A DNA stretch of 64,000 nucleotides, from contig NZ_JACHWH010000003.1 in NCBI RefSeq assembly GCF_014191255.1, positions 439,501-503,500 on the forward strand. Reading direction: 5' to 3'. The notes beneath the pieces were generated by a model. That model saw only the letters and a program-made list of their open reading frames with translations. It was not told the DNA's origin and searched no databases. The translations under genes were made by a program, and so were the position numbers. Numbering within the stretch: position 1 is the first letter of the stretch; the number at the start of each line of letters is the position of its first letter. Below, piece after piece: positions 6,611 through 16,338 of this stretch. Origin of the DNA: Amycolatopsis bartoniae (GTDB lineage: Bacteria; Actinomycetota; Actinomycetes; Mycobacteriales; Pseudonocardiaceae).

Positions 6611-7567
6611 TCACGCCAGCGTCGGGTCACCCCAGGCGAGCTCGGGTGGCCGCGACCGGCCGCGCACCGGCGCCCCTGGCGCGACCGGTGCGCCGGGCCT
6701 CGCCATCTCCAGCCGCAGCTTCCGCACGCCGCTGACGTTCACCTCGACGGTCCTCGGGTTGCCCTGCGCGGCCCGCACCACCGGCTGCGGCCGCCCGTCG
6801 AGCACGACCCGGAAGTCCCCGACCTGGAACGGTTCCGCGGCGTCGTCCGGCACGCCCACCACCGCGGTCAGCCGCGCGTACGCGCCGCAGAGGTCCAGTT
6901 CGACGAAGCTCCACGGCTGGGCCGGCACGGACTTCGGGCGCAGCACGATGCTGTCGCCGTAGTGCCCGCCGCCGATCCACGCCTCGCCCGCCCGGACCCC
7001 GGAGCTGTGCGCGAGCCAGGGCAGGTCCTTCGCGGCCGTCGGGTGTTCGCCCCCGCCGCCCCGCCAGATCCCGCGCTCGGGCATCGGGTACTGCCCGTGC
7101 CCGGTGATCGCGGCCAGCAGCGGTTCGACCGCTTCGGGGGAGATCTCGGAAATTTCGTACCTCGTGGTGGAGTACGCGTTGAGGAACGTCGGGATGTCGT
7201 CCACCGAGCAGCCCGGCAGTACGACGGGCAGCACCCGTTCCGTCTCGCGGCTCAGGTTGCGCGTGAGGTTGTTGCGGATGATCGCCGACTCGAACTGCGA
7301 GCCGCGTCCTTCGTCCGGCGGCGCGGTCCCGTCGGCGCGGCTGCGGTAGTCGGGCGAGGCGACCACGACGATGAAGTCGGCCTCGTTGAGCTGCTCGATC
7401 GCCCACAGCGACCAGTCCCGGCGCCGGTGGTCGTCCCACTGGTCCAGGCGGACGTCGAGCCCGATCCGCGACCGCAGGAAGGTCGCGAACCGGAGTACCT
7501 GAGCCTTGTGTTCGGCGGAGTCGTGCGCATAGGTCACGAAGACCCTCGGCGCGTCGCGGTCGGCCAT
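6611..7567 (-). CDS. SEFIR-domain protein with C-terminal NPCBM-like beta domain
   Basis: A 318-residue protein with two parts. Residues 8-155 are a SEFIR/TIR-superfamily domain: strand A VFVTYAHDS, DVRLDQWDDHRRRDWSLW, strand D DFIVVVASPDYRSR, and the GSQFESAIIRNNL helix characteristic of SEFIR proteins. Residues about 185-290 (AWIGGGHYGDSIVLRP, WSFVELDLCGAYARLTAVVGV, FRVVLDGR, VEVNVSGVRKLRLEM) match the beta-strand pattern of NPCBM-type sugar-binding domains. The ATG chosen gives MADRDAPRVFVTYAH, right at the domain start. It is divergent from a TIR/ATPase operon with 135 bases between, so probably a fifth part of that cassette. Predicted cytosolic, with no signal peptide. SEFIR domains are adaptor or effector modules in bacterial conflict systems; enzymatic activity is not evident. 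Confidence 0.85.
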   Translation of the reverse strand: MADRDAPRVFVTYAHDSAEHKAQVLRFATFLRSRIGLDVRLDQWDDHRRRDWSLWAIEQLNEADFIVVVASPDYRSRADGTAPPDEGRGSQFESAIIRNNLTRNLSRETERVLPVVLPGCSVDDIPTFLNAYSTTRYEISEISPEAVEPLLAAITGHGQYPMPERGIWRGGGGEHPTAAKDLPWLAHSSGVRAGEAWIGGGHYGDSIVLRPKSVPAQPWSFVELDLCGAYARLTAVVGVPDDAAEPFQVGDFRVVLDGRPQPVVRAAQGNPRTVEVNVSGVRKLRLEMARPGAPVAPGAPVRGRSRPPELAWGDPTLA

Positions 7568-7702
7568 ACCGGCATTGTGGCCGAGCCTGCCGCCGGCGGC
7601 GGGGTTGTCCGGTTTCTGTCCGCAATTCTGCCTGGTTTCCCGTCGTTTTCCGGCTCTAGCATCGTTTCCGTTCCGTGGGGAGAGCGAAGGAGCGATGAAC
7701 GC
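7568..7702. promoter_or_regulatory. Divergent promoter region of the SEFIR/TIR cassette
   Basis: The 135 bases separating the SEFIR gene from the TIR operon must carry both promoters if the genes are transcribed divergently. For the plus strand a TAGCAT -10-like hexamer lies about 40 bases before the TIR start and an AAGGAG ribosome site (7687-7692) lies 10 bases before the GTG. No strong dyad was seen, so no regulator can be proposed. Confidence 0.4.
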
Positions 7703-8266
7703 GTGTACGAGTACGACGTGTTCATCAGCTACCGGCGCGGGGGTGGCACGTTGCCGGAATGGGTTCGCAACCACTTCCACCCCCGGTTGTCGGCTCTACT
7801 GGAGGATTATCTCGGGGAGTCGCGCGTCTTTCTCGACGACAAGGTGCCGACCGGTGCTTCCCTGCCGTCGGAGCAGCGCGATGCCCTGCTGCGGAGCCGG
7901 ATTCTCGTGCCGGTGTGCTCGCCTCCGTACTTCCACGACGAGTGGTGCCTGTCCGAATGGGCTTCGATGGCCGAGCGAGAACGGCTGCTGGGTGCGGCAC
8001 GGTTGATCTACCCGGTCGTCTTCTGCGATTCGGTGAACTTTCCCGAATGGGCGCACGAGCGGAAGCTGCGCCATTTCAACGAGCTGAACCAGCCCGACGT
8101 CCAGTTCCAGGCTTCACCCGCCTACGTCGACTTCCACCAGGAAATGAAGACCGTTGCGGTCGAACTGGTGGAGCTGATCGGCCAGGCGCCGGAATGGCAG
8201 TCCGGCTGGCCGGTCCTCAGTCCGCGGCCGGATCCGCCGCCGCAGTCCCGATTGCCGAGGTTCTGA
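7703..8266 (+). CDS. TIR-domain protein, probable NAD+-consuming effector
   Basis: A 187-residue cytosolic TIR protein. Strand A with box 1 is YDVFISYRR at residues 4-12, the BB-loop region is VFLDDKVPTGASLPSE, and box 3 is DEWCLSEWASM at 79-89. The Glu in WCLSE (about residue 85) matches the catalytic glutamate of NAD-hydrolysing TIR domains, so enzymatic activity is plausible. The domain fills residues 3-160, with a Pro-rich tail. A GTG start is chosen because it directly precedes the first strand and has AAGGAG ten bases upstream. Its TGA overlaps the next ATG by one base, so it is translationally coupled to the KGGVGR ATPase gene. NADase activity is inferred from the motif and untested. 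Confidence 0.88.
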   Translation: MYEYDVFISYRRGGGTLPEWVRNHFHPRLSALLEDYLGESRVFLDDKVPTGASLPSEQRDALLRSRILVPVCSPPYFHDEWCLSEWASMAERERLLGAARLIYPVVFCDSVNFPEWAHERKLRHFNELNQPDVQFQASPAYVDFHQEMKTVAVELVELIGQAPEWQSGWPVLSPRPDPPPQSRLPRF

Positions 8267-9888
8267 TGCCGGGCACCGTGCTCACCTTCTACTCCTACAA
8301 GGGCGGCGTCGGGCGCAGCTTCGCGCTGGCCAACATCGCGGTCCTGCTCGCGCGCTGGGGCCACCGCGTGCTGTGCCTGGACTGGGACCTGGAGGCGCCG
8401 GGCCTGCACCACTACTTCCGCCCGATGCTCGGCCAGCCCGTGCAGGGCGGCGTGGTCGACCTGGTGGAGGACTTCCGTTCCGGCAGGCTGCGGCCCGGGG
8501 CGCACGCCATCCGGGTGACCGACGCGGGTGCGCTCGACCTCATCCCGGCTGGAGCCGACGGTCCCGACTACGTCTCGCGGGTCCAGGGCCTCGACTGGGA
8601 CGAGCTGTACGACGACGGTTTCGGCGAGTACCTCGAACAGTGCCGGGAACGCTGGATCGCCGACTACGACTACGTGCTGCTCGACAGCCGCACCGGCGTC
8701 TCGGACATCGGCGGCATCTGCACGGCGCACCTGCCGGACCGGCTGGTGGTCCTGTTCACCGCGAACGAGCAGAGCGTGCGGGGCGCGGTGGACATCGCCG
8801 AGCGCGCGAACGTCGCGCGGGACCGGCTGCCGTTCGACCGCCCGCAGCTGACCGTTCTGCCCGTGCTGTCGCGGTTCGACAGCCGGGAGGAGTACGACCG
8901 GGCCGAGGAGTGGCGCGGGCGCTGCTTCGAGCAGGCCAAGGGCTTGTTCCACAACTGGCTGCACCGCAGCGTGCCGGTGGAGACGATGGCGCGGCACCTG
9001 ACGCTGCCGTACGTGTCGTACTGGAGCTTCGGCGAGCAGCTTCCCGTGCGGCAGGAGGAGAACCCGGCGTCGGACCAGATCAGCTTCGCGCTCGAGACGG
9101 TCGCGGCGGTGGTGGCGCGGCACTTCGACCGCACCGACCTGCTGGCGGAGAACCGGGACGCCTACGTGGCCGCCGTGCGGGACAGCAGGCGGGATTTCCC
9201 GGTCGACGTCAGGGTGAGCACGCCTAGGTCCACATTGGACGAAGCCGACGCGCTGATCGACTCGCTGAAGGAGCGGGGCGTGCGGGCGGAGCGGTCGCTG
9301 TCCGGCGATCCGTCCCTGCTCGCCCACGTGAACGACGACGCGCGGCACCTGTGCCTGATCGTGGACCGCGCGGTGAGCCGGTGGCAGTCCGCGGAGGCCG
9401 AGCTGTTCCTGCACCGGTCGTTCGGGCAGGACCGGAGGGTGATCCCGGTGCTCACGGCCGACGCCGACGCCCAGGCCTTGCCCGGTCCGGTGCGCAACCT
9501 GCGGTACCTGCGGCTCGGGCTGACGCGGGGTCCGGCGGAGGTGGCGCGGGAGATCGCCGGGCAGCTCGGCCGGACCTCGTTGACCGACAACGGCGACCTC
9601 GACCTCGTCGGCGCGCTGCGCCAGGCCGCCGGGGCCCGGCTGCGGCCGCTGCTGTGGGAGCTGGTGGACGAGACCGTGCGCGCGCTGGTCGCCGCGGTCG
9701 AGGCCGGGGACGACGCGCAGGCGCAGGACCTCGCCGCCGACCTCGCGCTGGCGCTGCGGCCCCGTGCGACGCCGGGGGAGGAGCACCTGCGGGTGCCCGC
9801 GCCGCGCGACACGGGGGAACAGATCGAACAGGGCCTGCGGCTGCTCTCCGGCCGCGGAAACCACCACAGTGGAAGGGATTTCCGATGA
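8266..9888 (+). CDS. KGGVGR-motif ParA/MinD-like ATPase with TIR-like C-terminal domain
   Basis: A 540-residue protein. The N-terminal half is a SIMIBI (ParA/MinD-type) ATPase: the P-loop at residues 12-18 is KGGVGRS, the variant in which Arg replaces the usual Lys of KGGVGKT; DWDLEAPGL (39-47) and DYVLLDSRTGVSD (135-147) follow as switch and Walker B segments. Residues about 312-435 (DVRVSTPRSTLDEADALIDS, HLCLIVDRAVSRWQS, RRVIPVLTA, LRYLRLGL) have the alternating beta-alpha pattern of a degenerate TIR/SEFIR-type domain without a clear catalytic Glu. The C terminus is helical. No parB or parS accompanies it, so it is not a partition protein. Family knowledge: KGGVGR ATPases occur beside TIR-like proteins in actinobacterial conflict loci. 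It overlaps the next gene by four bases (ATGA). Confidence 0.85.
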   Translation: MPGTVLTFYSYKGGVGRSFALANIAVLLARWGHRVLCLDWDLEAPGLHHYFRPMLGQPVQGGVVDLVEDFRSGRLRPGAHAIRVTDAGALDLIPAGADGPDYVSRVQGLDWDELYDDGFGEYLEQCRERWIADYDYVLLDSRTGVSDIGGICTAHLPDRLVVLFTANEQSVRGAVDIAERANVARDRLPFDRPQLTVLPVLSRFDSREEYDRAEEWRGRCFEQAKGLFHNWLHRSVPVETMARHLTLPYVSYWSFGEQLPVRQEENPASDQISFALETVAAVVARHFDRTDLLAENRDAYVAAVRDSRRDFPVDVRVSTPRSTLDEADALIDSLKERGVRAERSLSGDPSLLAHVNDDARHLCLIVDRAVSRWQSAEAELFLHRSFGQDRRVIPVLTADADAQALPGPVRNLRYLRLGLTRGPAEVAREIAGQLGRTSLTDNGDLDLVGALRQAAGARLRPLLWELVDETVRALVAAVEAGDDAQAQDLAADLALALRPRATPGEEHLRVPAPRDTGEQIEQGLRLLSGRGNHHSGRDFR

Positions 9889-10514
9889 CGGACCGGCTGG
9901 GACACAAGCAGACCGCCGCCATGTTCGCCCTGCTCGCGCTCGGCCGGGAGGTGTCGAACAACGAGCTGAAGGAGTTCGCGGGCTTCGCGCTCACCGGGGC
10001 CGAGCGCACGGAGCTGAACAGGCGCGAGTACGTCCAGAGCAACACGGAGAAGGCGCCCCACCGGCACAAGCTGACCGAGCGCGGCCGCGAGTGGTGCCTC
10101 GAAGAGCTGTCCCACGGCCGCCCGCCCGCGCCCAAACCCCGCACCGTGCTCGCCGCGCCGCTCTACGCCGTCCTGGGCGAGTTCGCGCGGTACCTCAAGC
10201 AGCAGAACGTGTCGCTGGACGAGGTCTTCGGGTCCGCGGAGCCGCTCACCGAGGAGGAAATCGAGCGCCGGATCCGGGAGAACTACCGGAAGCTGGTCCG
10301 GTCTCCGGACGGCTGGGTGGGGCTGGCCGACCTGCGTCCGCTGATCGGCGCCCCGGCCGAGGAGGTGGACGTGGTGCTGAAGAAGCTCAGCCGGGCCGGA
10401 AAGGCGCACCTCGTCCCCGAACCCAACCGCAAGGCGCTCACCGAGAAGGCGCGCCAGGCGGCCTTCCGCCTCGGCGGTGAGGACAACCACCTGGTCAGGA
10501 TCGAGGCACTGTGA
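9885..10514 (+). CDS. Winged-helix-like linker protein of the TIR/ATPase cassette
   Basis: A 209-residue soluble protein of unknown family. The N-terminal third (HKQTAAMFALLALGREVSN then LTERGREWCLEEL) and the C-terminal third (GWVGLADLRPLIGAPAEEVD then LVPEPNRKALTEKARQAA) each look like a winged helix: an opening helix, a recognition-like helix and a basic LTE-R/LTEKAR wing. The middle is helical (YAVLGEFARYLKQQNVSLDEV). Two winged helices in one chain suggest nucleic-acid binding or a scaffold between ATPases. It overlaps both neighbours, by four bases upstream and one or four downstream, so all four proteins are probably made together. The function is inferred only from fold-like patterns and context. 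Confidence 0.7.
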   Translation: MTDRLGHKQTAAMFALLALGREVSNNELKEFAGFALTGAERTELNRREYVQSNTEKAPHRHKLTERGREWCLEELSHGRPPAPKPRTVLAAPLYAVLGEFARYLKQQNVSLDEVFGSAEPLTEEEIERRIRENYRKLVRSPDGWVGLADLRPLIGAPAEEVDVVLKKLSRAGKAHLVPEPNRKALTEKARQAAFRLGGEDNHLVRIEAL

Positions 10515-13500
10515 TGGATCCACTCAGTGCGCTGACGATGCTGCGTTTCGACTGGGCGGACACCCCCGACCAGGTCTGGCGGGATTCGCCCTACCACGTC
10601 GAGGGTCTGCACTCCGACGTGTCGTCGGCGGTGGACGGGGCGGTCCGCGACGCCGCCACCAGCGACGGCCCGAGCCCCATCGGACTCGTGCTGCAGGGCC
10701 AGAAGGGCGTCGGCAAGACCCACCTGCTGGGCCTGGTCCGGCGGCAGACCCACCGAGCGGGCGGCTACTTCTTCCTCGACGACCTGACCGCACCCGACGC
10801 CTTCTGGGGGAACACGGCCGATGCGCTGCGCAGCGGCCTGGGCCGCACCGACGACTCGGGGAGTCCGCAGGCGCGCAGGTTCCTGCAACGGATCTGCCAC
10901 CGGAGCGGGGTGGATCCGCGGGTGGCCGAGACGATCGTGACGGGACACCGCCTGGGCAAGAACGACGTCGACGCCTTCGTCCTGGGCCTGCGCGTGCTCG
11001 ACCGGCAGCTGGCGACCGAAGCGGCCGATGTCGCGCGAGCGCTGGTGCTCTGTGGCAGCGAGGACGCCGAGCTGAACCGCCTGGGTGACGACTACCTCGG
11101 CGGGCGCGAGGAGTGGAAGAAGGGTGAGCGGCGGAAATGGGGAATCCGGCCCGAGCCGAAGCCGGAGCAGCAGCAGGTCCGCGACATCACCCGGCTGCTG
11201 GCGCTGACCGGTCCCGTCGTCATCGCCGTGGACCAGCTCGACACGCTCATGGCCCAGTCCGGGCTCGCGGCTCACGACACGGCCACGGACTCGGCGAAGT
11301 CACTGCTCGTGGCGCAGATCGCGGACGGGCTGATGCGCCTGCGGGAGCTCACGCGGCGGACCCTGACCGTGCTGGCCTGCCTGCCGGGAACCTGGGACCA
11401 GATCAAGGCGAACGCGACGGACTCGGTGCCGGACCGGTTCCGGGAGGCGCTGACCCTGGGGCGCATTCCGACCGCCGCCCTCGGCCGCGCGCTCGTCGAA
11501 CGGCGGCTCGGGGTGGCCTACGAGGGCATGGGCTTCCGGCCCCCGCAGCCGACGTGGCCGGTGGCGCCGTCGGCCTTCGAGGGGGAGTGGGACCAGTACA
11601 CGCCCCGTGAGCTGCTCAAGCGCATCGGGGCGCACATCGAGAACTGCCTGCGGGCCGGGCAGGTCCGGGAGCTGACCAGCTTCGACGGCGAGGCCCGGCC
11701 GGTGTCGCCGGTCCGCGTCGAGGAGCCGGATCGCTTCGCCGAGCTCGACACCCGGTTCGCGCAGCTGCGGGCACAGGCCGACGTGCGCATGCTGCTGAGC
11801 CAGAAGGCCGAGGACAAGGTGATGCCCTCGCTGCTGAACGCCGCGTTGCGGGGGTGGATCACCGAGGTCGGCAACGACAACATGGAGTGGGAGCCGCAGC
11901 CGCGCGAAGGCGGGGACGTGCACGCGTGGCTCACCCGGACCGTCGACGAGGCATCCGACCTCCAGGAGCACTGGGCGTTCCGGGTCATCTCGGCTTCGCA
12001 CCACCTGGCGGTGCTGACCCGGCTGCGGAAGGCGACGTCGGCCGCCGGTCTGCGGCCTGGCGTCGGCAACCGGCACCTGATCGTCCTGCGGAACGCGAAG
12101 TGGTCCCCGGGTCCGAAGACCCAGCAGGAACTGGCCGCCTTTCGCGCGGCGGGCGGGAAAACACTGGCACTGTCCGAAGAGGACGTTCGTACTTTCTGGG
12201 CCCTGGAGCAGATGCTCGCGCAGGGCGGGACGGAGCTGCACGAGTGGCTGGTGGAGCGCAGGCCCGCCGGGAAGTCCGGGCTGCTGTCGGCGGTGCTGCC
12301 CGACGAGCCGCAGCAGGCTCCGGGCGTCGACGACGAGCTGACGCTCGGCACCGAGACCGGCTCCGGGGAGCCCGTGCGCATCGGCCTCGCGGCGTTGCGG
12401 CAGCACACCGTCGTGTTCGCCGGGTCCGGGTCGGGGAAAACAGTGCTGCTGCGGCGGATCGTGGAGGAGTGCGCGTTGCGCGGGGTGTCGGCCATCGTGC
12501 TCGACCCCAACAACGACCTGGCCCGGCTCGGGGACGCGTGGCCGCAACCGCCGTCCGCGTGGGGGCCCGGTGACGACCGGCTCGCGGCGCGGTACCTCGC
12601 CGGGACCGACGTCGTCGTGTGGACGCCGGGGCGGGCGAACGGCAGGCCGCTGACCTTCCAGCCGCTGCCGGACTTCGCGGGTGTCCTCGACGACGAGGAC
12701 GAGTTCGCCGCGGCCGTGGAGGTGGCGGTGGCGACGCTCACCCCGCAGATCGGGCTCACCGGCAGCACCCAGAAGGCCAGCAGGGGCCTGGCGGTGCTGC
12801 GGCAGGCGGTGGTGCATCACGCCCGCACCGGGTCGCGGAGCCTGCCGGGGCTCATCGAGGTCCTGTCCGACCTGCCGGAGGACGCGAGCGACCTCAACGG
12901 CGCCGCGCGGATCGCCGCCGACCTGGCCGAGTCCCTCAAGGCGGCGATGGTGAACGACCCGTTGTTCGCGGGCAAAGGCGACCCGGTGGACCCGGGCAGG
13001 CTGCTCACGCCCGCGGTGGGCAAGCGGGCGCGGGTGAGCGTGATCAGCTTCGTGGGGTTGCCGGCGGACGAGCAGCGGCAGAACTTCGTCAACCAGCTGC
13101 AGATGGAGCTGTTCGCGTGGGCGAAGCGGAACCCGTCCGACCGGCCGCTGGGCGCGTTGTTCGTGATGGACGAGGCGCAGACGTTGGCCGCGTCGGGCAC
13201 GTTGACGGCCAGCACCCGCAGCACGATTGTGCTCGCGTCGCAGGCGCGGAAGTACGGGCTGGGGTTGCTGTTCGCGACGCAGGCGCCGAAGGGGCTGCAC
13301 AACCAGATCGTGGGCAACGCGATGACGCAGTTCTTCGGGCGCCTCAACAGCCCGGCCCAGATCGCGGCGGCGAACGAGATGGCAAGGGCGAAGGGCAGCC
13401 CGGTCGCCGACATCTCGCGGCTGGAGCGCGCGCAGTTCTACGTCTCGGGCGAGGCGTTCGGCTTCCGCCAGGTGACGACCCCGCTGTGCCTGACCCACCA

Positions 13501-13567
13501 CCCCGCGAGCCCGCTCCGCCTGGAGGAGGTGCTGGACCGAGCCCGCAAACCCCTGGACGACGAGTGA
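10514..13567 (+). CDS. Two-P-loop ATPase: N-terminal AAA/STAND-like half, C-terminal HerA/FtsK-like half
   Basis: A 1017-residue protein with two nucleotide-binding sites. The first has Walker A GQKGVGKT at residues 62-69 and Walker B VVIAVDQLDTL at 235-245, an AAA/STAND-type pattern. The second has GSGSGKT at 637-643, the HerA-type IVLDPNNDLARLG after it, Walker B ALFVMDEAQTL at 881-891 and a sensor LLFATQAP at 918-925, as in HerA/FtsK hexameric DNA translocases. Between them, residues about 485-575 (HLIVLRNAKWSPGPKTQQEL) may be a nuclease-like or linker domain that I cannot name. No membrane segment is seen. The start is the ATG overlapping the upstream TGA by one base; a GTG one codon earlier would give a GTGA overlap. 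It is last in the operon and the likely motor or sensor of the system. Confidence 0.88.
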   Translation: MDPLSALTMLRFDWADTPDQVWRDSPYHVEGLHSDVSSAVDGAVRDAATSDGPSPIGLVLQGQKGVGKTHLLGLVRRQTHRAGGYFFLDDLTAPDAFWGNTADALRSGLGRTDDSGSPQARRFLQRICHRSGVDPRVAETIVTGHRLGKNDVDAFVLGLRVLDRQLATEAADVARALVLCGSEDAELNRLGDDYLGGREEWKKGERRKWGIRPEPKPEQQQVRDITRLLALTGPVVIAVDQLDTLMAQSGLAAHDTATDSAKSLLVAQIADGLMRLRELTRRTLTVLACLPGTWDQIKANATDSVPDRFREALTLGRIPTAALGRALVERRLGVAYEGMGFRPPQPTWPVAPSAFEGEWDQYTPRELLKRIGAHIENCLRAGQVRELTSFDGEARPVSPVRVEEPDRFAELDTRFAQLRAQADVRMLLSQKAEDKVMPSLLNAALRGWITEVGNDNMEWEPQPREGGDVHAWLTRTVDEASDLQEHWAFRVISASHHLAVLTRLRKATSAAGLRPGVGNRHLIVLRNAKWSPGPKTQQELAAFRAAGGKTLALSEEDVRTFWALEQMLAQGGTELHEWLVERRPAGKSGLLSAVLPDEPQQAPGVDDELTLGTETGSGEPVRIGLAALRQHTVVFAGSGSGKTVLLRRIVEECALRGVSAIVLDPNNDLARLGDAWPQPPSAWGPGDDRLAARYLAGTDVVVWTPGRANGRPLTFQPLPDFAGVLDDEDEFAAAVEVAVATLTPQIGLTGSTQKASRGLAVLRQAVVHHARTGSRSLPGLIEVLSDLPEDASDLNGAARIAADLAESLKAAMVNDPLFAGKGDPVDPGRLLTPAVGKRARVSVISFVGLPADEQRQNFVNQLQMELFAWAKRNPSDRPLGALFVMDEAQTLAASGTLTASTRSTIVLASQARKYGLGLLFATQAPKGLHNQIVGNAMTQFFGRLNSPAQIAAANEMARAKGSPVADISRLERAQFYVSGEAFGFRQVTTPLCLTHHPASPLRLEEVLDRARKPLDDE

Positions 13568-13678: not shown

Positions 13679-13702
13679 CCTACGCGGCAAAGGAGCCGAG
13701 GA

Positions 13703-15078
13703 GTGGACCAGGCCGAACTGAGGGCACTGAGCGACCGCGCGGCCCGGCACGTGCTCAACCGCGAGGGCACCGGCGACGGGCGCAAGGCCGGCTGGCTCAT
13801 GATCTCCACCATCCTCGTCGAGGCGTGGGACCTCTACGCCATCTCGTTCCTGCTCCTGTTCATCCGCGACGAGCTGCACCCCAGCCCCGCGATGCTCGGC
13901 CTCGCCTCGGGCGCCGTGCAGGCCGGGGCGCTGCTCGGCGCGGTCTTCGGCGGCTGGATCGCCGACCGGCTCGGTCGGCGCCGCGTGTTCCTCGCGACCA
14001 TGATCCTGTTCATCGTGCTCGCGGTGGCGCAGGCGTTCGCCGCGAACATGTGGCAGCTGGTGCTCATCCGGCTGCTGCTGGGCTTCCCGCTCGGCAGCGA
14101 CATCTCCACCGGCTACGCCTACATCATGGAGAGCATGCCCCGCGGCAAGCGCGAGGTGATGGGCAACCGCTGGCAGGCGATGTTCGGTCTCGGCGAGATC
14201 GTCGCCATCATCGTCGTGACGATCATGTACCTCTCCGGCGTCGACCACGGCCTGTTGTGGCGCATCGGGCTCGGCCTCGGCGCCGTGCCCGCGCTGGTTC
14301 TGCTCACCCTGCGCCTCGACGTGCCCGACACCGCGCTCGCGCTGATCCAGCGGGGCCGCTTCGCCCAGGCGAAACGGGTGTCGCGGCAGATGTTCGACGA
14401 CGACCTGGACATGCTGCCCGACCGCGACTACCGCATCGAACGCCCACGCACCCGCGACTTCCTCGCCAACATCTGGGCCGATCCCGTGCGGCGCAAGGCG
14501 AGCGTCTTCGCCTGGATCTCCAACGCCATGCAGGGCGCGGAGTTCGCCGCCTTCGGCTTCTACCTGCCGACGATCCTCGTGCTCACCGGCGTCACCGGGG
14601 TGGCCGCGACGAACTTCGTCACCGCGGGGATCTACGTCATCGCCACCATCGGCGGGTTCACCGCCCCTCTCGCGACCCCGAAGATCGGCCACCGCGGCGT
14701 CGCGCGCGTCGGCTACGGCATGGCGTTCGTGTCGCTGCTGCTGGCCGCGCTGTTCCTGCGCGTGGACTGGAAACCCCTGGTGCCGCTCGCCGCGGCCGGG
14801 CTCATGTTCGGGCACTACTGGGACGCCTCGAACGGGATGACGATCGCCTCGATGGTGGCGCCCTCGCGGTACCGGGCGACCGCGTCCGGCTTCGGCTACG
14901 TCTTCGTGAAGCTGGCGTCGTTCGTGTCGATCTTCTTCTTCCCCATCCTGTTCTCCGGGCTCGGCGTGCCGCTCGCGACCGTGCTGGTCTCCCTGCTGTC
15001 CTTGACCGGCTTCCTCGCCGCGACCTACGTTCTTCCCGAGGTCTACGGCTACGTGGAGCAGGAACAGGAGGAGACAGC

Positions 15079-15082
<4 letters not shown>
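13703..15082 (+). CDS. MFS transporter coupled to a 2-hydroxyacid dehydrogenase
   Basis: A 459-residue transporter of about 12 helices. It has the motif GGWIADRLGRRRVFLA after TM2, the PLGSDISTGYAYIMESMPRGKR segment seen in sugar/acid porters, and a long cytoplasmic loop with FAQAKRVSRQMFDDD. A GTG start with AGGAG eight bases upstream is used; an earlier in-frame codon lacks a ribosome site and would add a charged leader. It overlaps the following FMN-dependent dehydrogenase gene by four bases, so it likely imports that enzyme's substrate, perhaps lactate, mandelate or another 2-hydroxy acid. That substrate is inferred only from the pairing. Confidence 0.85.

Positions 15083-16338
<1,256 letters not shown>

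What the first reader, a model, noticed from the sequence alone, without database searches (positions are those of the whole stretch)
6611..13567. Five-gene TIR/SEFIR/KGGVGR-ATPase/winged-helix/HerA-like cassette: candidate novel conflict system
The sequence shows a SEFIR protein divergent from four genes with overlaps of one, four and one (or four) bases. The proteins are a TIR with the catalytic-type Glu, a KGGVGR ATPase fused to a TIR-like domain, a double winged-helix-like protein and a two-P-loop ATPase whose C half looks like HerA. TIR and SEFIR domains, NAD depletion and HerA translocases each occur in known antiphage systems (Thoeris, SIR2-HerA, DUF4297-HerA), but I know of no described system with exactly this gene set. 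The inference is that an ATPase complex senses or translocates DNA and triggers the TIR to consume NAD+.
Basis: partly seen in the sequence, partly recalled or inferred. Interest (0 to 1): 0.85.

Follow-up and report, generated by a model that had tools for sequence, protein, structure and literature searches.

The report
HerA defence core with NADase effectors
This looks like a conserved cluster of bacterial immunity genes in which a DNA-pumping motor and its DNA-binding partner form a fixed core, while the weapon beside them (here two predicted NAD-consuming enzymes and an ATPase switch) is exchanged for other weapons in related bacteria.

Summary
In detail: a SEFIR gene lies divergent to four overlapping genes (TIR, KGGVGR ATPase, double winged-helix, AAA+/HerA ATPase) with motif residues invariant among the relatives aligned. 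All five genes recur in 35 of 58 loci of one genome scan. They are not the unit of the system, though. The core is the winged-helix/HerA pair (together at 32 of 32 places in 150 genomes). Beside 84 HerA genes the partners are lineage-specific: DUF559 nuclease (19), AIPR/AbiU (5), PDC-M02 (3), TIR+KGGVGR (13), the same plus SEFIR (36), SEFIR alone (1), none recognised (7). By parsimony TIR+KGGVGR joined once and SEFIR later. The core resembles the "HerA/FtsK capture" Orc/CDC6 systems predicted by Rakesh et al. 2024 (PMC10853773); the TIR/KGGVGR/SEFIR version was not met in ten searches of the held papers. Likely mechanism (inferred): the core engages invading DNA and switches on NAD-consuming effectors. 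Unexpectedly, the second winged-helix domain is shared with proteins of actinobacterial plasmids and probable integrative elements, hinting at such elements as targets. No function was tested. New variant of a known kind.

The parts
6611..7567 (-). SEFIR protein with C-terminal NPCBM-type domain (318 aa); invariant Glu93; conserved C-terminal tail LAWGxP
   Evidence: Pfam SEFIR 6e-19, NPCBM 3e-6; PADLOC bSEFIR 3e-29; alignment A5, 13 sequences
7568..7702 (.). 135-base divergent intergenic region, presumed to hold both promoters (inference, not scanned)
   Evidence: coordinates; median 225 bases over 35 called SEFIR/TIR pairs
7703..8266 (+). TIR protein (187 aa); catalytic-type Glu85 (codon 7955-7957) in the WCxxE motif
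   Evidence: Pfam TIR_2 8.5e-11; W81, C82, E85 invariant in 15 of 15; profile matches plant TIR structures
8266..9888 (+). KGGVGR-variant ParA/MinD-like ATPase (540 aa), TIR-like middle (weak), CATASP C-terminus; KGGVGRS at 8299-8319
   Evidence: NCBIfam NF047398 1.9e-45; CATASP 5e-10 and weak TIR_2; motif invariant in 14 of 14
9885..10514 (+). Double winged-helix protein (209 aa), first half of the core; second domain (about residues 118-205) shared with plasmid/element proteins
   Evidence: AlphaFold mean pLDDT 88.4; beside HerA at 32 of 32 places; homologues of the second domain
10511..13567 (+). AAA+ / REase-like / HerA ATPase (1018 aa), second half of the core
   Evidence: Pfam DUF87 5e-9, AAA_22 1e-7; Foldseek HerA, DndH-C, DUF4297-HerA, Sir2-HerA; alignment A1, 23 rows
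10697..10720 (+). First Walker A of the HerA protein (K69); its Walker B-type DQ(L/I)D lies at residues 241-244
   Evidence: K69, T70, D241, Q242, D244 invariant in 23 of 23
11873..12166 (+). Beta-beta-beta-alpha-beta domain (residues about 455-552), possibly an inactive REase-fold domain
   Evidence: AlphaFold secondary structure; no conserved D...ExK seen in the 23 rows
12419..12442 (+). Second Walker A (HerA half, K643)
   Evidence: K643, T644 invariant in 23 of 23
13169..13180 (+). HerA Walker B (D887 E888 A889 Q890); R913 and sensor-1-type Q924 follow
   Evidence: invariant in 23 of 23

Best explanation
An accessory immunity system. The double winged-helix protein and the AAA+/HerA ATPase form the sensor core: a probable ring on double-stranded DNA that engages invading replicons. 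When it captures or pumps foreign DNA it releases the effector module beside it. Here that module is a TIR enzyme held by a KGGVGR ParA/MinD-like switch, plus a separately transcribed SEFIR enzyme; both would consume NAD+ and stop the cell before the invader spreads. Shown: the genes, domains, intact motifs, constant core, co-inheritance and effector replacement by lineage. Inferred: ring assembly, DNA engagement, NAD+ consumption, order of signalling, abortive outcome.
For: Core pair together at 32 of 32 places in 150 genomes; 63 of 81 winged-helix/HerA joins overlap by 4 bases. All 16 full-length KGGVGR matches lie beside HerA. Distance matrices agree: TIR-KGGVGR rho 0.92, KGGVGR-HerA 0.88, winged-helix-HerA 0.88. 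Other lineages have defence-type genes in the same place: AIPR/AbiU in 5, PDC-M02A/B in 3, DUF559 nuclease in 19. On the HerA tree TIR+KGGVGR and SEFIR each need one gain. TIR Glu85 is invariant in 15 of 15 and the profile matches plant TIRs. HerA fold hits include DndH-C, DUF4297-HerA and Sir2-HerA. Mokosh-like genes adjoin the cassette in L025 and L004; pPIWI-RE genes adjoin the core in L039. Patchy in the genus: 5 of 19 genomes. Analogue in print: SIR2-HerA depletes NAD+, and phage defence needs the SIR2 active site and HerA (PMC11559045, passages read).
Against: No activity was measured. The six window neighbours scanned are metabolic or transport genes, not a defence island (the glycosidase matches a CARF-beta-galactosidase PADLOC profile over its enzyme part only). 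KGGVGR changes the P-loop Lys to Arg, so the switch may not hydrolyse ATP; MinD/ParA-like domains in another class of conflict systems were called inactive (PMC7159879, passage read). No relative was confirmed in viral contigs by a two-pattern scan. Seven of 84 HerA genes show no recognised effector. SEFIR distances track the others loosely (rho 0.43-0.57; shuffled maxima 0.33-0.50), and SEFIR domains are common elsewhere (30 shorter matches in the 150 genomes). One flank group chains 23 of 84 rows, so much inheritance is vertical.
Confidence: 0.6

Rival explanations
1. Two separate systems share an operon: a TIR-KGGVGR(-SEFIR) module related to other TIR/KGGVGR pairs, and an independent winged-helix/HerA system.
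For: A TIR + KGGVGR-TPR pair without HerA exists (L109), and a KGGVGR protein beside two weak TIR-profile matches (L115); TIR matches FxsC_Nterm at 4e-13, below its cut-off.
Against: All 16 full-length KGGVGR matches in 150 genomes lie beside HerA (E limit 1e-30, 9 candidates scored per genome); association made once by parsimony and kept in 49 of 50 rows of its group; TIR and KGGVGR distances track HerA at rho 0.87 and 0.88.
Confidence: 0.15
2. TIR and SEFIR act mainly as signal makers or adaptors (cyclic ADP-ribose-type messenger, or scaffolds) rather than as NAD-depleting killers; the AAA+/HerA protein or an unlinked protein is the effector.
For: TIR domains make messengers in Thoeris (recalled); the SEFIR protein has a conserved extreme C-terminal tail that could be a docking peptide.
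Against: No SLOG, Macro or CARF match in the five proteins; related cores carry nuclease-type or Abi-type genes in the same place.
Confidence: 0.15
3. A regulatory or developmental cell-death device of multicellular actinomycetes, not aimed at invaders.
For: The TIR version was seen only in Pseudonocardiaceae-type genomes among those fetched; MinD/ParA-like and TIR domains recur in conflict systems of multicellular bacteria (PMC7159879, passages read). CATASP is named after CATRA conflict systems (Pfam name; CATRA mentioned in one passage of PMC8195603).
Against: Patchy within a genus (5 of 19); nuclease and AbiU alternatives; defence genes beside several loci.
Confidence: 0.08

Closest known systems
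HerA/FtsK capture systems, Orc/CDC6 branch (Rakesh, Aravind, Krishnan 2024, PMC10853773)
   Same: AAA+ ATPase, HerA/FtsK ATPase and a rapidly evolving protein with two or more winged-helix domains, with effectors; possibly a REase-like domain after the AAA+ core; sensor-1 Gln and upstream Arg as they describe for HerA/FtsK
   Different: AAA+ and HerA are one 1018-aa chain; the effector here is TIR + KGGVGR + SEFIR rather than an active REase (the DUF559 relatives do have a REase-type gene). Their TIR mention concerns Orc/Cdc6-TIR fusions in neighbourhoods without HerA
SIR2-HerA (called Nezha in PMC11559045)
   Same: Predicted NAD-consuming effector coupled to a HerA motor
   Different: SIR2 versus TIR/SEFIR; solved HerA chains there are about 570 residues without an AAA+ half; no KGGVGR or winged-helix protein (recalled)
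DUF4297-HerA (PMC11291478, abstract read)
   Same: HerA coupled to an effector in one complex; fold match
   Different: Nuclease effector, two components only
bSEFIR (PADLOC) and Thoeris TIR proteins
   Same: SEFIR domain matches the bSEFIR model at 3e-29; TIR fold
   Different: bSEFIR is a single-gene system (recalled); best Thoeris model 17.6 bits against a cut-off of 220
FxSxx-COOH systems (FxsC TIR protein)
   Same: TIR protein related to FxsC; pairing with a KGGVGR ATPase is recalled and fits L115
   Different: FxsC model 49.6 bits against a cut-off of 130; peptide and radical-SAM genes not searched for
MADS (mad8)
   Same: HerA half matches the PADLOC mad8 profile at 7e-17
   Different: Only residues 619-980 match; no other mad profile was listed for the five proteins

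Membership tests
HerA/FtsK capture, Orc/CDC6 branch | HerA/FtsK ATPase domain with sensor-1 Gln and upstream Arg | tested here: met
   DUF87 5e-9; fold hits; R913 and Q924 invariant in 23 of 23
HerA/FtsK capture, Orc/CDC6 branch | Orc/CDC6-family AAA+ ATPase | tested here: inconclusive
   AAA_22 1e-7 above cut-off, AAA_16 1e-6 below it; the ORC-CDC6-like model itself only E 0.22
HerA/FtsK capture, Orc/CDC6 branch | inactive REase domain after the AAA+ core | tested here: inconclusive
   beta-beta-beta-alpha-beta domain in the model, no conserved catalytic motif seen; the domain was not searched on its own
HerA/FtsK capture, Orc/CDC6 branch | protein with 2-4 winged-helix domains | tested here: met
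   two in the model; Foldseek hits are mostly winged-helix regulators, none with E below 0.001; kinship to DndG not tested
HerA/FtsK capture, Orc/CDC6 branch | active REase in the neighbourhood | tested here: not met
   none in the window cassette; a DUF559 nuclease stands beside 19 of 84 related HerA genes
SIR2-HerA / DUF4297-HerA | two-gene unit with SIR2 or DUF4297 effector | tested here: not met
   no SIR2 or DUF4297 match; NCBIfam HerA_antiphage 26 bits, cut-off 800
Thoeris | ThsA/ThsB or ThcB-type proteins | tested here: not met
   best Thoeris model 17.6 bits, cut-off 220
FxSxx-COOH | FxsC TIR protein | tested here: not met
   NF040588 49.6 bits, cut-off 130
FxSxx-COOH | FxSxx-COOH precursor peptide | not tested
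   no search for small precursor ORFs was made
KGGVGR-variant AAA ATPase (NF047398) | profile score above the curated cut-off | tested here: met
   155.5 bits, cut-off 90
TIR NADase effector | catalytic Glu in the WCxxE motif | tested here: met
   E85 invariant in 15 of 15; its catalytic role in plant and SARM1 TIRs is recalled
TIR NADase effector | NAD+ hydrolysis | not testable with these tools
   needs an enzyme assay

The most novel reading that the evidence does not exclude
A general immune chassis with exchangeable weapons: one winged-helix/AAA+-HerA sensor that in different lineages drives a nuclease, an Abi protein or NAD-destroying TIR/SEFIR enzymes, so that one trigger is read out by chemically unrelated killers. 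Its second winged-helix domain was taken from, or is shared with, the DNA-handling proteins of actinobacterial plasmids and integrative elements, so the system recognises conjugating elements by binding the same kind of site as the element's own protein.
Probability: 0.3. Interest if true: 0.85.

Novelty: new variant of a known kind. Interest (0 to 1): 0.62.

Why it matters
It links two arms of bacterial immunity usually described apart (TIR/SEFIR proteins and AAA+/HerA capture machines), and gives a tree-ordered series of effector changes on one conserved core, so one can ask directly how a DNA motor switches on unrelated effectors. The shared winged-helix domain offers a testable idea of what such cores recognise.

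Tried and rejected
The winged-helix profile against PDB sequences returned calmodulins in all 60 rows shown of 186 (best E 1.7e-5); treated as spurious, because the AlphaFold model is winged-helix. PADLOC PDC-M28B matches the KGGVGR protein (3.7e-27) only over its ATPase part, so it was not filed there. A viral-contig scan gave 39 pattern hits and no confirmed relative. In the plasmid collection 3 of 72,556 records held the HerA protein; the Nonomuraea record is 11.85 Mb and the Tsukamurella record holds a ribosomal operon, so those two are probably chromosomal sequence. The winged-helix protein gave weak matches in two records of one Gordonia phage, in a tape-measure gene; not pursued. I first took small genes around the Rhodococcus loci for a prophage; Pfam showed ribosomal proteins. 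L102's DUF5682/VWA neighbour, L097's WD40 protein and L086's aminotransferase were not counted as effectors.

Rows dropped: of 102 rows, 13 short or repeat loci and 5 near-identical ones were left out, giving 84 HerA genes from 83 loci (L044 has two HerA genes and one DUF559 gene, counted twice). Eight loci with a short, broken or truncated HerA frame as called (L033, L041, L047, L052, L055, L056, L058, L059) never entered that table. L016 and L019 were put by hand in the SEFIR+TIR+KGGVGR class from tblastn evidence, because my simple gene caller split or missed the TIR gene. Several Rhodococcus DUF559 frames were called short. L072's flank was cut; a longer stretch (L118) showed no DUF559, AIPR or PDC-M02B match. 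My AIPR and PDC-M02 profiles were built from the very proteins they label, so each of these was checked with Pfam or PADLOC. The HerA tree is a quick one, midpoint-rooted; L106 and L107 are long branches whose place is unsure. The genome searches scored a capped number of candidates per genome (5, 9, 2), so extra copies may be missed; G049's HerA match holds one in-frame TGA.
Full report
Check of the observation. The window lies on contig 3 of a 7.76 Mb genome; the nearest named relative in the HerA tree is the Amycolatopsis sacchari locus L031 (75% identity in the HerA protein). All five genes are present at the stated places. The SEFIR gene runs from 7567 down to 6611; 135 bases away the TIR gene starts with GTG at 7703. 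TIR and KGGVGR genes overlap by one base, KGGVGR and winged-helix by four, winged-helix and HerA by four (GTG start) or one (ATG start).

Domains. SEFIR passes its Pfam cut-off and carries an NPCBM domain behind it; TIR passes; the ATPase passes the NCBIfam KGGVGR-variant model and ends in CATASP (CATRA-associated small protein). Its middle, aligned to TIR_2 below the cut-off, keeps W373, Q374 and E377 in 14 of 14 aligned sequences, so a degenerate or atypical TIR is plausible. The 209-aa protein matches no family, but AlphaFold gives two winged-helix domains, mean pLDDT 88.4, pTM 0.59; the Foldseek hits are mostly winged-helix regulators, none with E below 0.001. The large protein has two P-loops, both intact in 23 of 23 aligned sequences. 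Its model (mean pLDDT 77, pTM 0.47) shows an AAA+ half, a beta-beta-beta-alpha-beta domain, and a HerA half; fold hits include TrwB, archaeal HerA, DndH-C, DUF4297-HerA and Sir2-HerA.

Conservation. One scan of the genome collection (84,980 species, six peptide patterns) gave 58 loci. All five genes are present in 35, TIR+KGGVGR+core without SEFIR in 4, SEFIR+core in 1, core without any of the three as neighbour in 16, and HerA fragments in 2 (L039 has a distant SEFIR hit). In 150 genomes (the window's own included), HerA matches over both halves occur at 32 places in 30 genomes, always with a winged-helix match beside them (in G082 the winged-helix match comes in two pieces). Full-length KGGVGR matches number 16, all beside HerA; four weaker ones lie elsewhere. 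TIR has 18 places, 16 at the cassette. Of eight long SEFIR matches seven are at the cassette; 30 shorter ones were also found. Within the genus 5 of 19 genomes carry the core, one of them (G004, L098) with AIPR instead of TIR. Across the phylum 6 of 396 do, at E 1e-60.

Effector replacement. Gene calling around the loci and Pfam/PADLOC scans show what takes the place of TIR/KGGVGR beside 84 distinct HerA genes. A DUF559 nuclease stands beside 19, with VE.DG..H and DR.RD conserved at 90% or more in 13 aligned rows; hosts include Rhodococcus, Williamsia, Tsukamurella, Nonomuraea and a Methylobacterium plasmid. An AIPR protein follows HerA in 5, and all five match PADLOC AbiU at 8e-109 or better. 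PDC-M02A and PDC-M02B genes precede the core in 3 of 3 scanned. Seven show nothing recognised. On the HerA tree, TIR+KGGVGR rows form one group of 50 (support 100) with one loss (L022), split into 13 without and 37 with SEFIR (each 100); AIPR rows form one group (99); DUF559 is scattered over at least two places. In all there are 9 changes, against a mean of 43 in shuffles, which near-copies alone could explain in part. Distances among TIR, KGGVGR, winged-helix and HerA proteins agree at rho 0.86-0.92 in 45-49 loci (shuffled maxima 0.19-0.50); SEFIR agrees only at 0.43-0.57. The 84 rows fall into 31 flanking contexts by my rule, the 36 five-gene rows into 11; one chained group holds 23 rows, so much inheritance is vertical.

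Defence setting. Two genes downstream of the window cassette (13685-16311) are 80% identical in G006 and G004. G006 has no HerA match and G004 has one on another contig; similarity to G006 begins 57 bases after the HerA stop. This fits an accessory insertion, though the left side does not align. L025 and L004 have a SEFIR gene with MkoA-like and MkoB-like genes (Mokosh-like) next to the cassette. L039 has pPIWI-RE genes and AIPR around the core. The six window neighbours scanned are two transporters, a FAD oxidoreductase, a TMEM175-type channel, an FMN dehydrogenase and a glycosidase.

An unexpected clue. The second winged-helix domain, alone or doubled, occurs in other proteins of the same genomes. 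Their neighbours include DUF2637, DUF3631, C5-methylase and FtsK-like genes, which I read as integrative or plasmid-like elements; that reading is inference. On named plasmids, 8 of 72,556 records match the winged-helix protein, six of them only from residue 134 on. So the sensor shares a DNA-binding-type domain with the kind of element it may guard against.

Mechanism. I propose that the winged-helix/AAA+-HerA core assembles on invading DNA and thereby licenses the effector module. In this version the KGGVGR ATPase, a ParA/MinD relative whose P-loop Lys is Arg, would hold and release the TIR protein, with SEFIR as a second arm. Only the anatomy and evolution are shown; DNA engagement, NAD+ consumption and cell arrest are inferred from known TIR enzymes (recalled) and from SIR2-HerA, where SIR2 active-site residues and HerA are needed for defence (PMC11559045, passages read).

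Known or new. PMC10853773 (outline, passages, and sections 21, 22 and 26 read) describes HerA/FtsK capture systems with Orc/CDC6 ATPases, REases and multi-winged-helix proteins; PMC12839542 (passages read) adds a BREX-related one. Our core resembles these; the Orc/CDC6 and inactive-REase assignments stay inconclusive here. In ten paper searches none of the listed titles and abstract openings, nor the passages I read, describes the TIR/KGGVGR/SEFIR version; the word KGGVGR gave one unrelated paper. Supplements, preprints and most subscription papers were out of reach, including the 2020 paper I recall as defining CATRA, so prior mention cannot be excluded.

Noticed in passing
L046:6770-13565, L107:6922-16985: In Rhodococcus (L046) and Tsukamurella (L107) the core sits between the rpsQ (S17) and rplN (L14) genes, with VapBC-type genes and a DEAD/DEAH helicase also there in Tsukamurella; gene clusters suggest the same place in several other Rhodococcus loci. 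It looks like an insertion hot spot for defence genes.
   Followed up: partly
L110:8014-9807, L111:7967-8887, L112:7443-8486, L113:8065-8598, L114:8316-8579: The second winged-helix domain of the core protein is found single or tandem in uncharacterised proteins, most of them beside genes typical of mobile elements.
   Followed up: partly
L109:8347-11258: A TIR gene overlapping a KGGVGR-TPR protein without any HerA core: the TIR/KGGVGR pair is itself portable.
   Followed up: no
L025:13372-18952, L004:333-5901: A SEFIR protein (with a weak kinase match in L025) beside MkoA-like and MkoB-like genes, a possible SEFIR-bearing variant of Mokosh, directly next to the cassette.
   Followed up: partly
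L044:2435-9579: Two diverged HerA-core paralogues in tandem in one Rhodococcus locus.
   Followed up: no
window:6614-6643 and window:8252-8263: Conserved extreme C-termini: LAWG in 13 of 13 SEFIR proteins, LPRF near the end in 9 of 15 TIR proteins; possible docking tails.
   Followed up: no
plasmid record NZ_LR134464.1 (L107): Listed as a plasmid but carries the ribosomal protein operon; probably chromosomal sequence.
   Followed up: no
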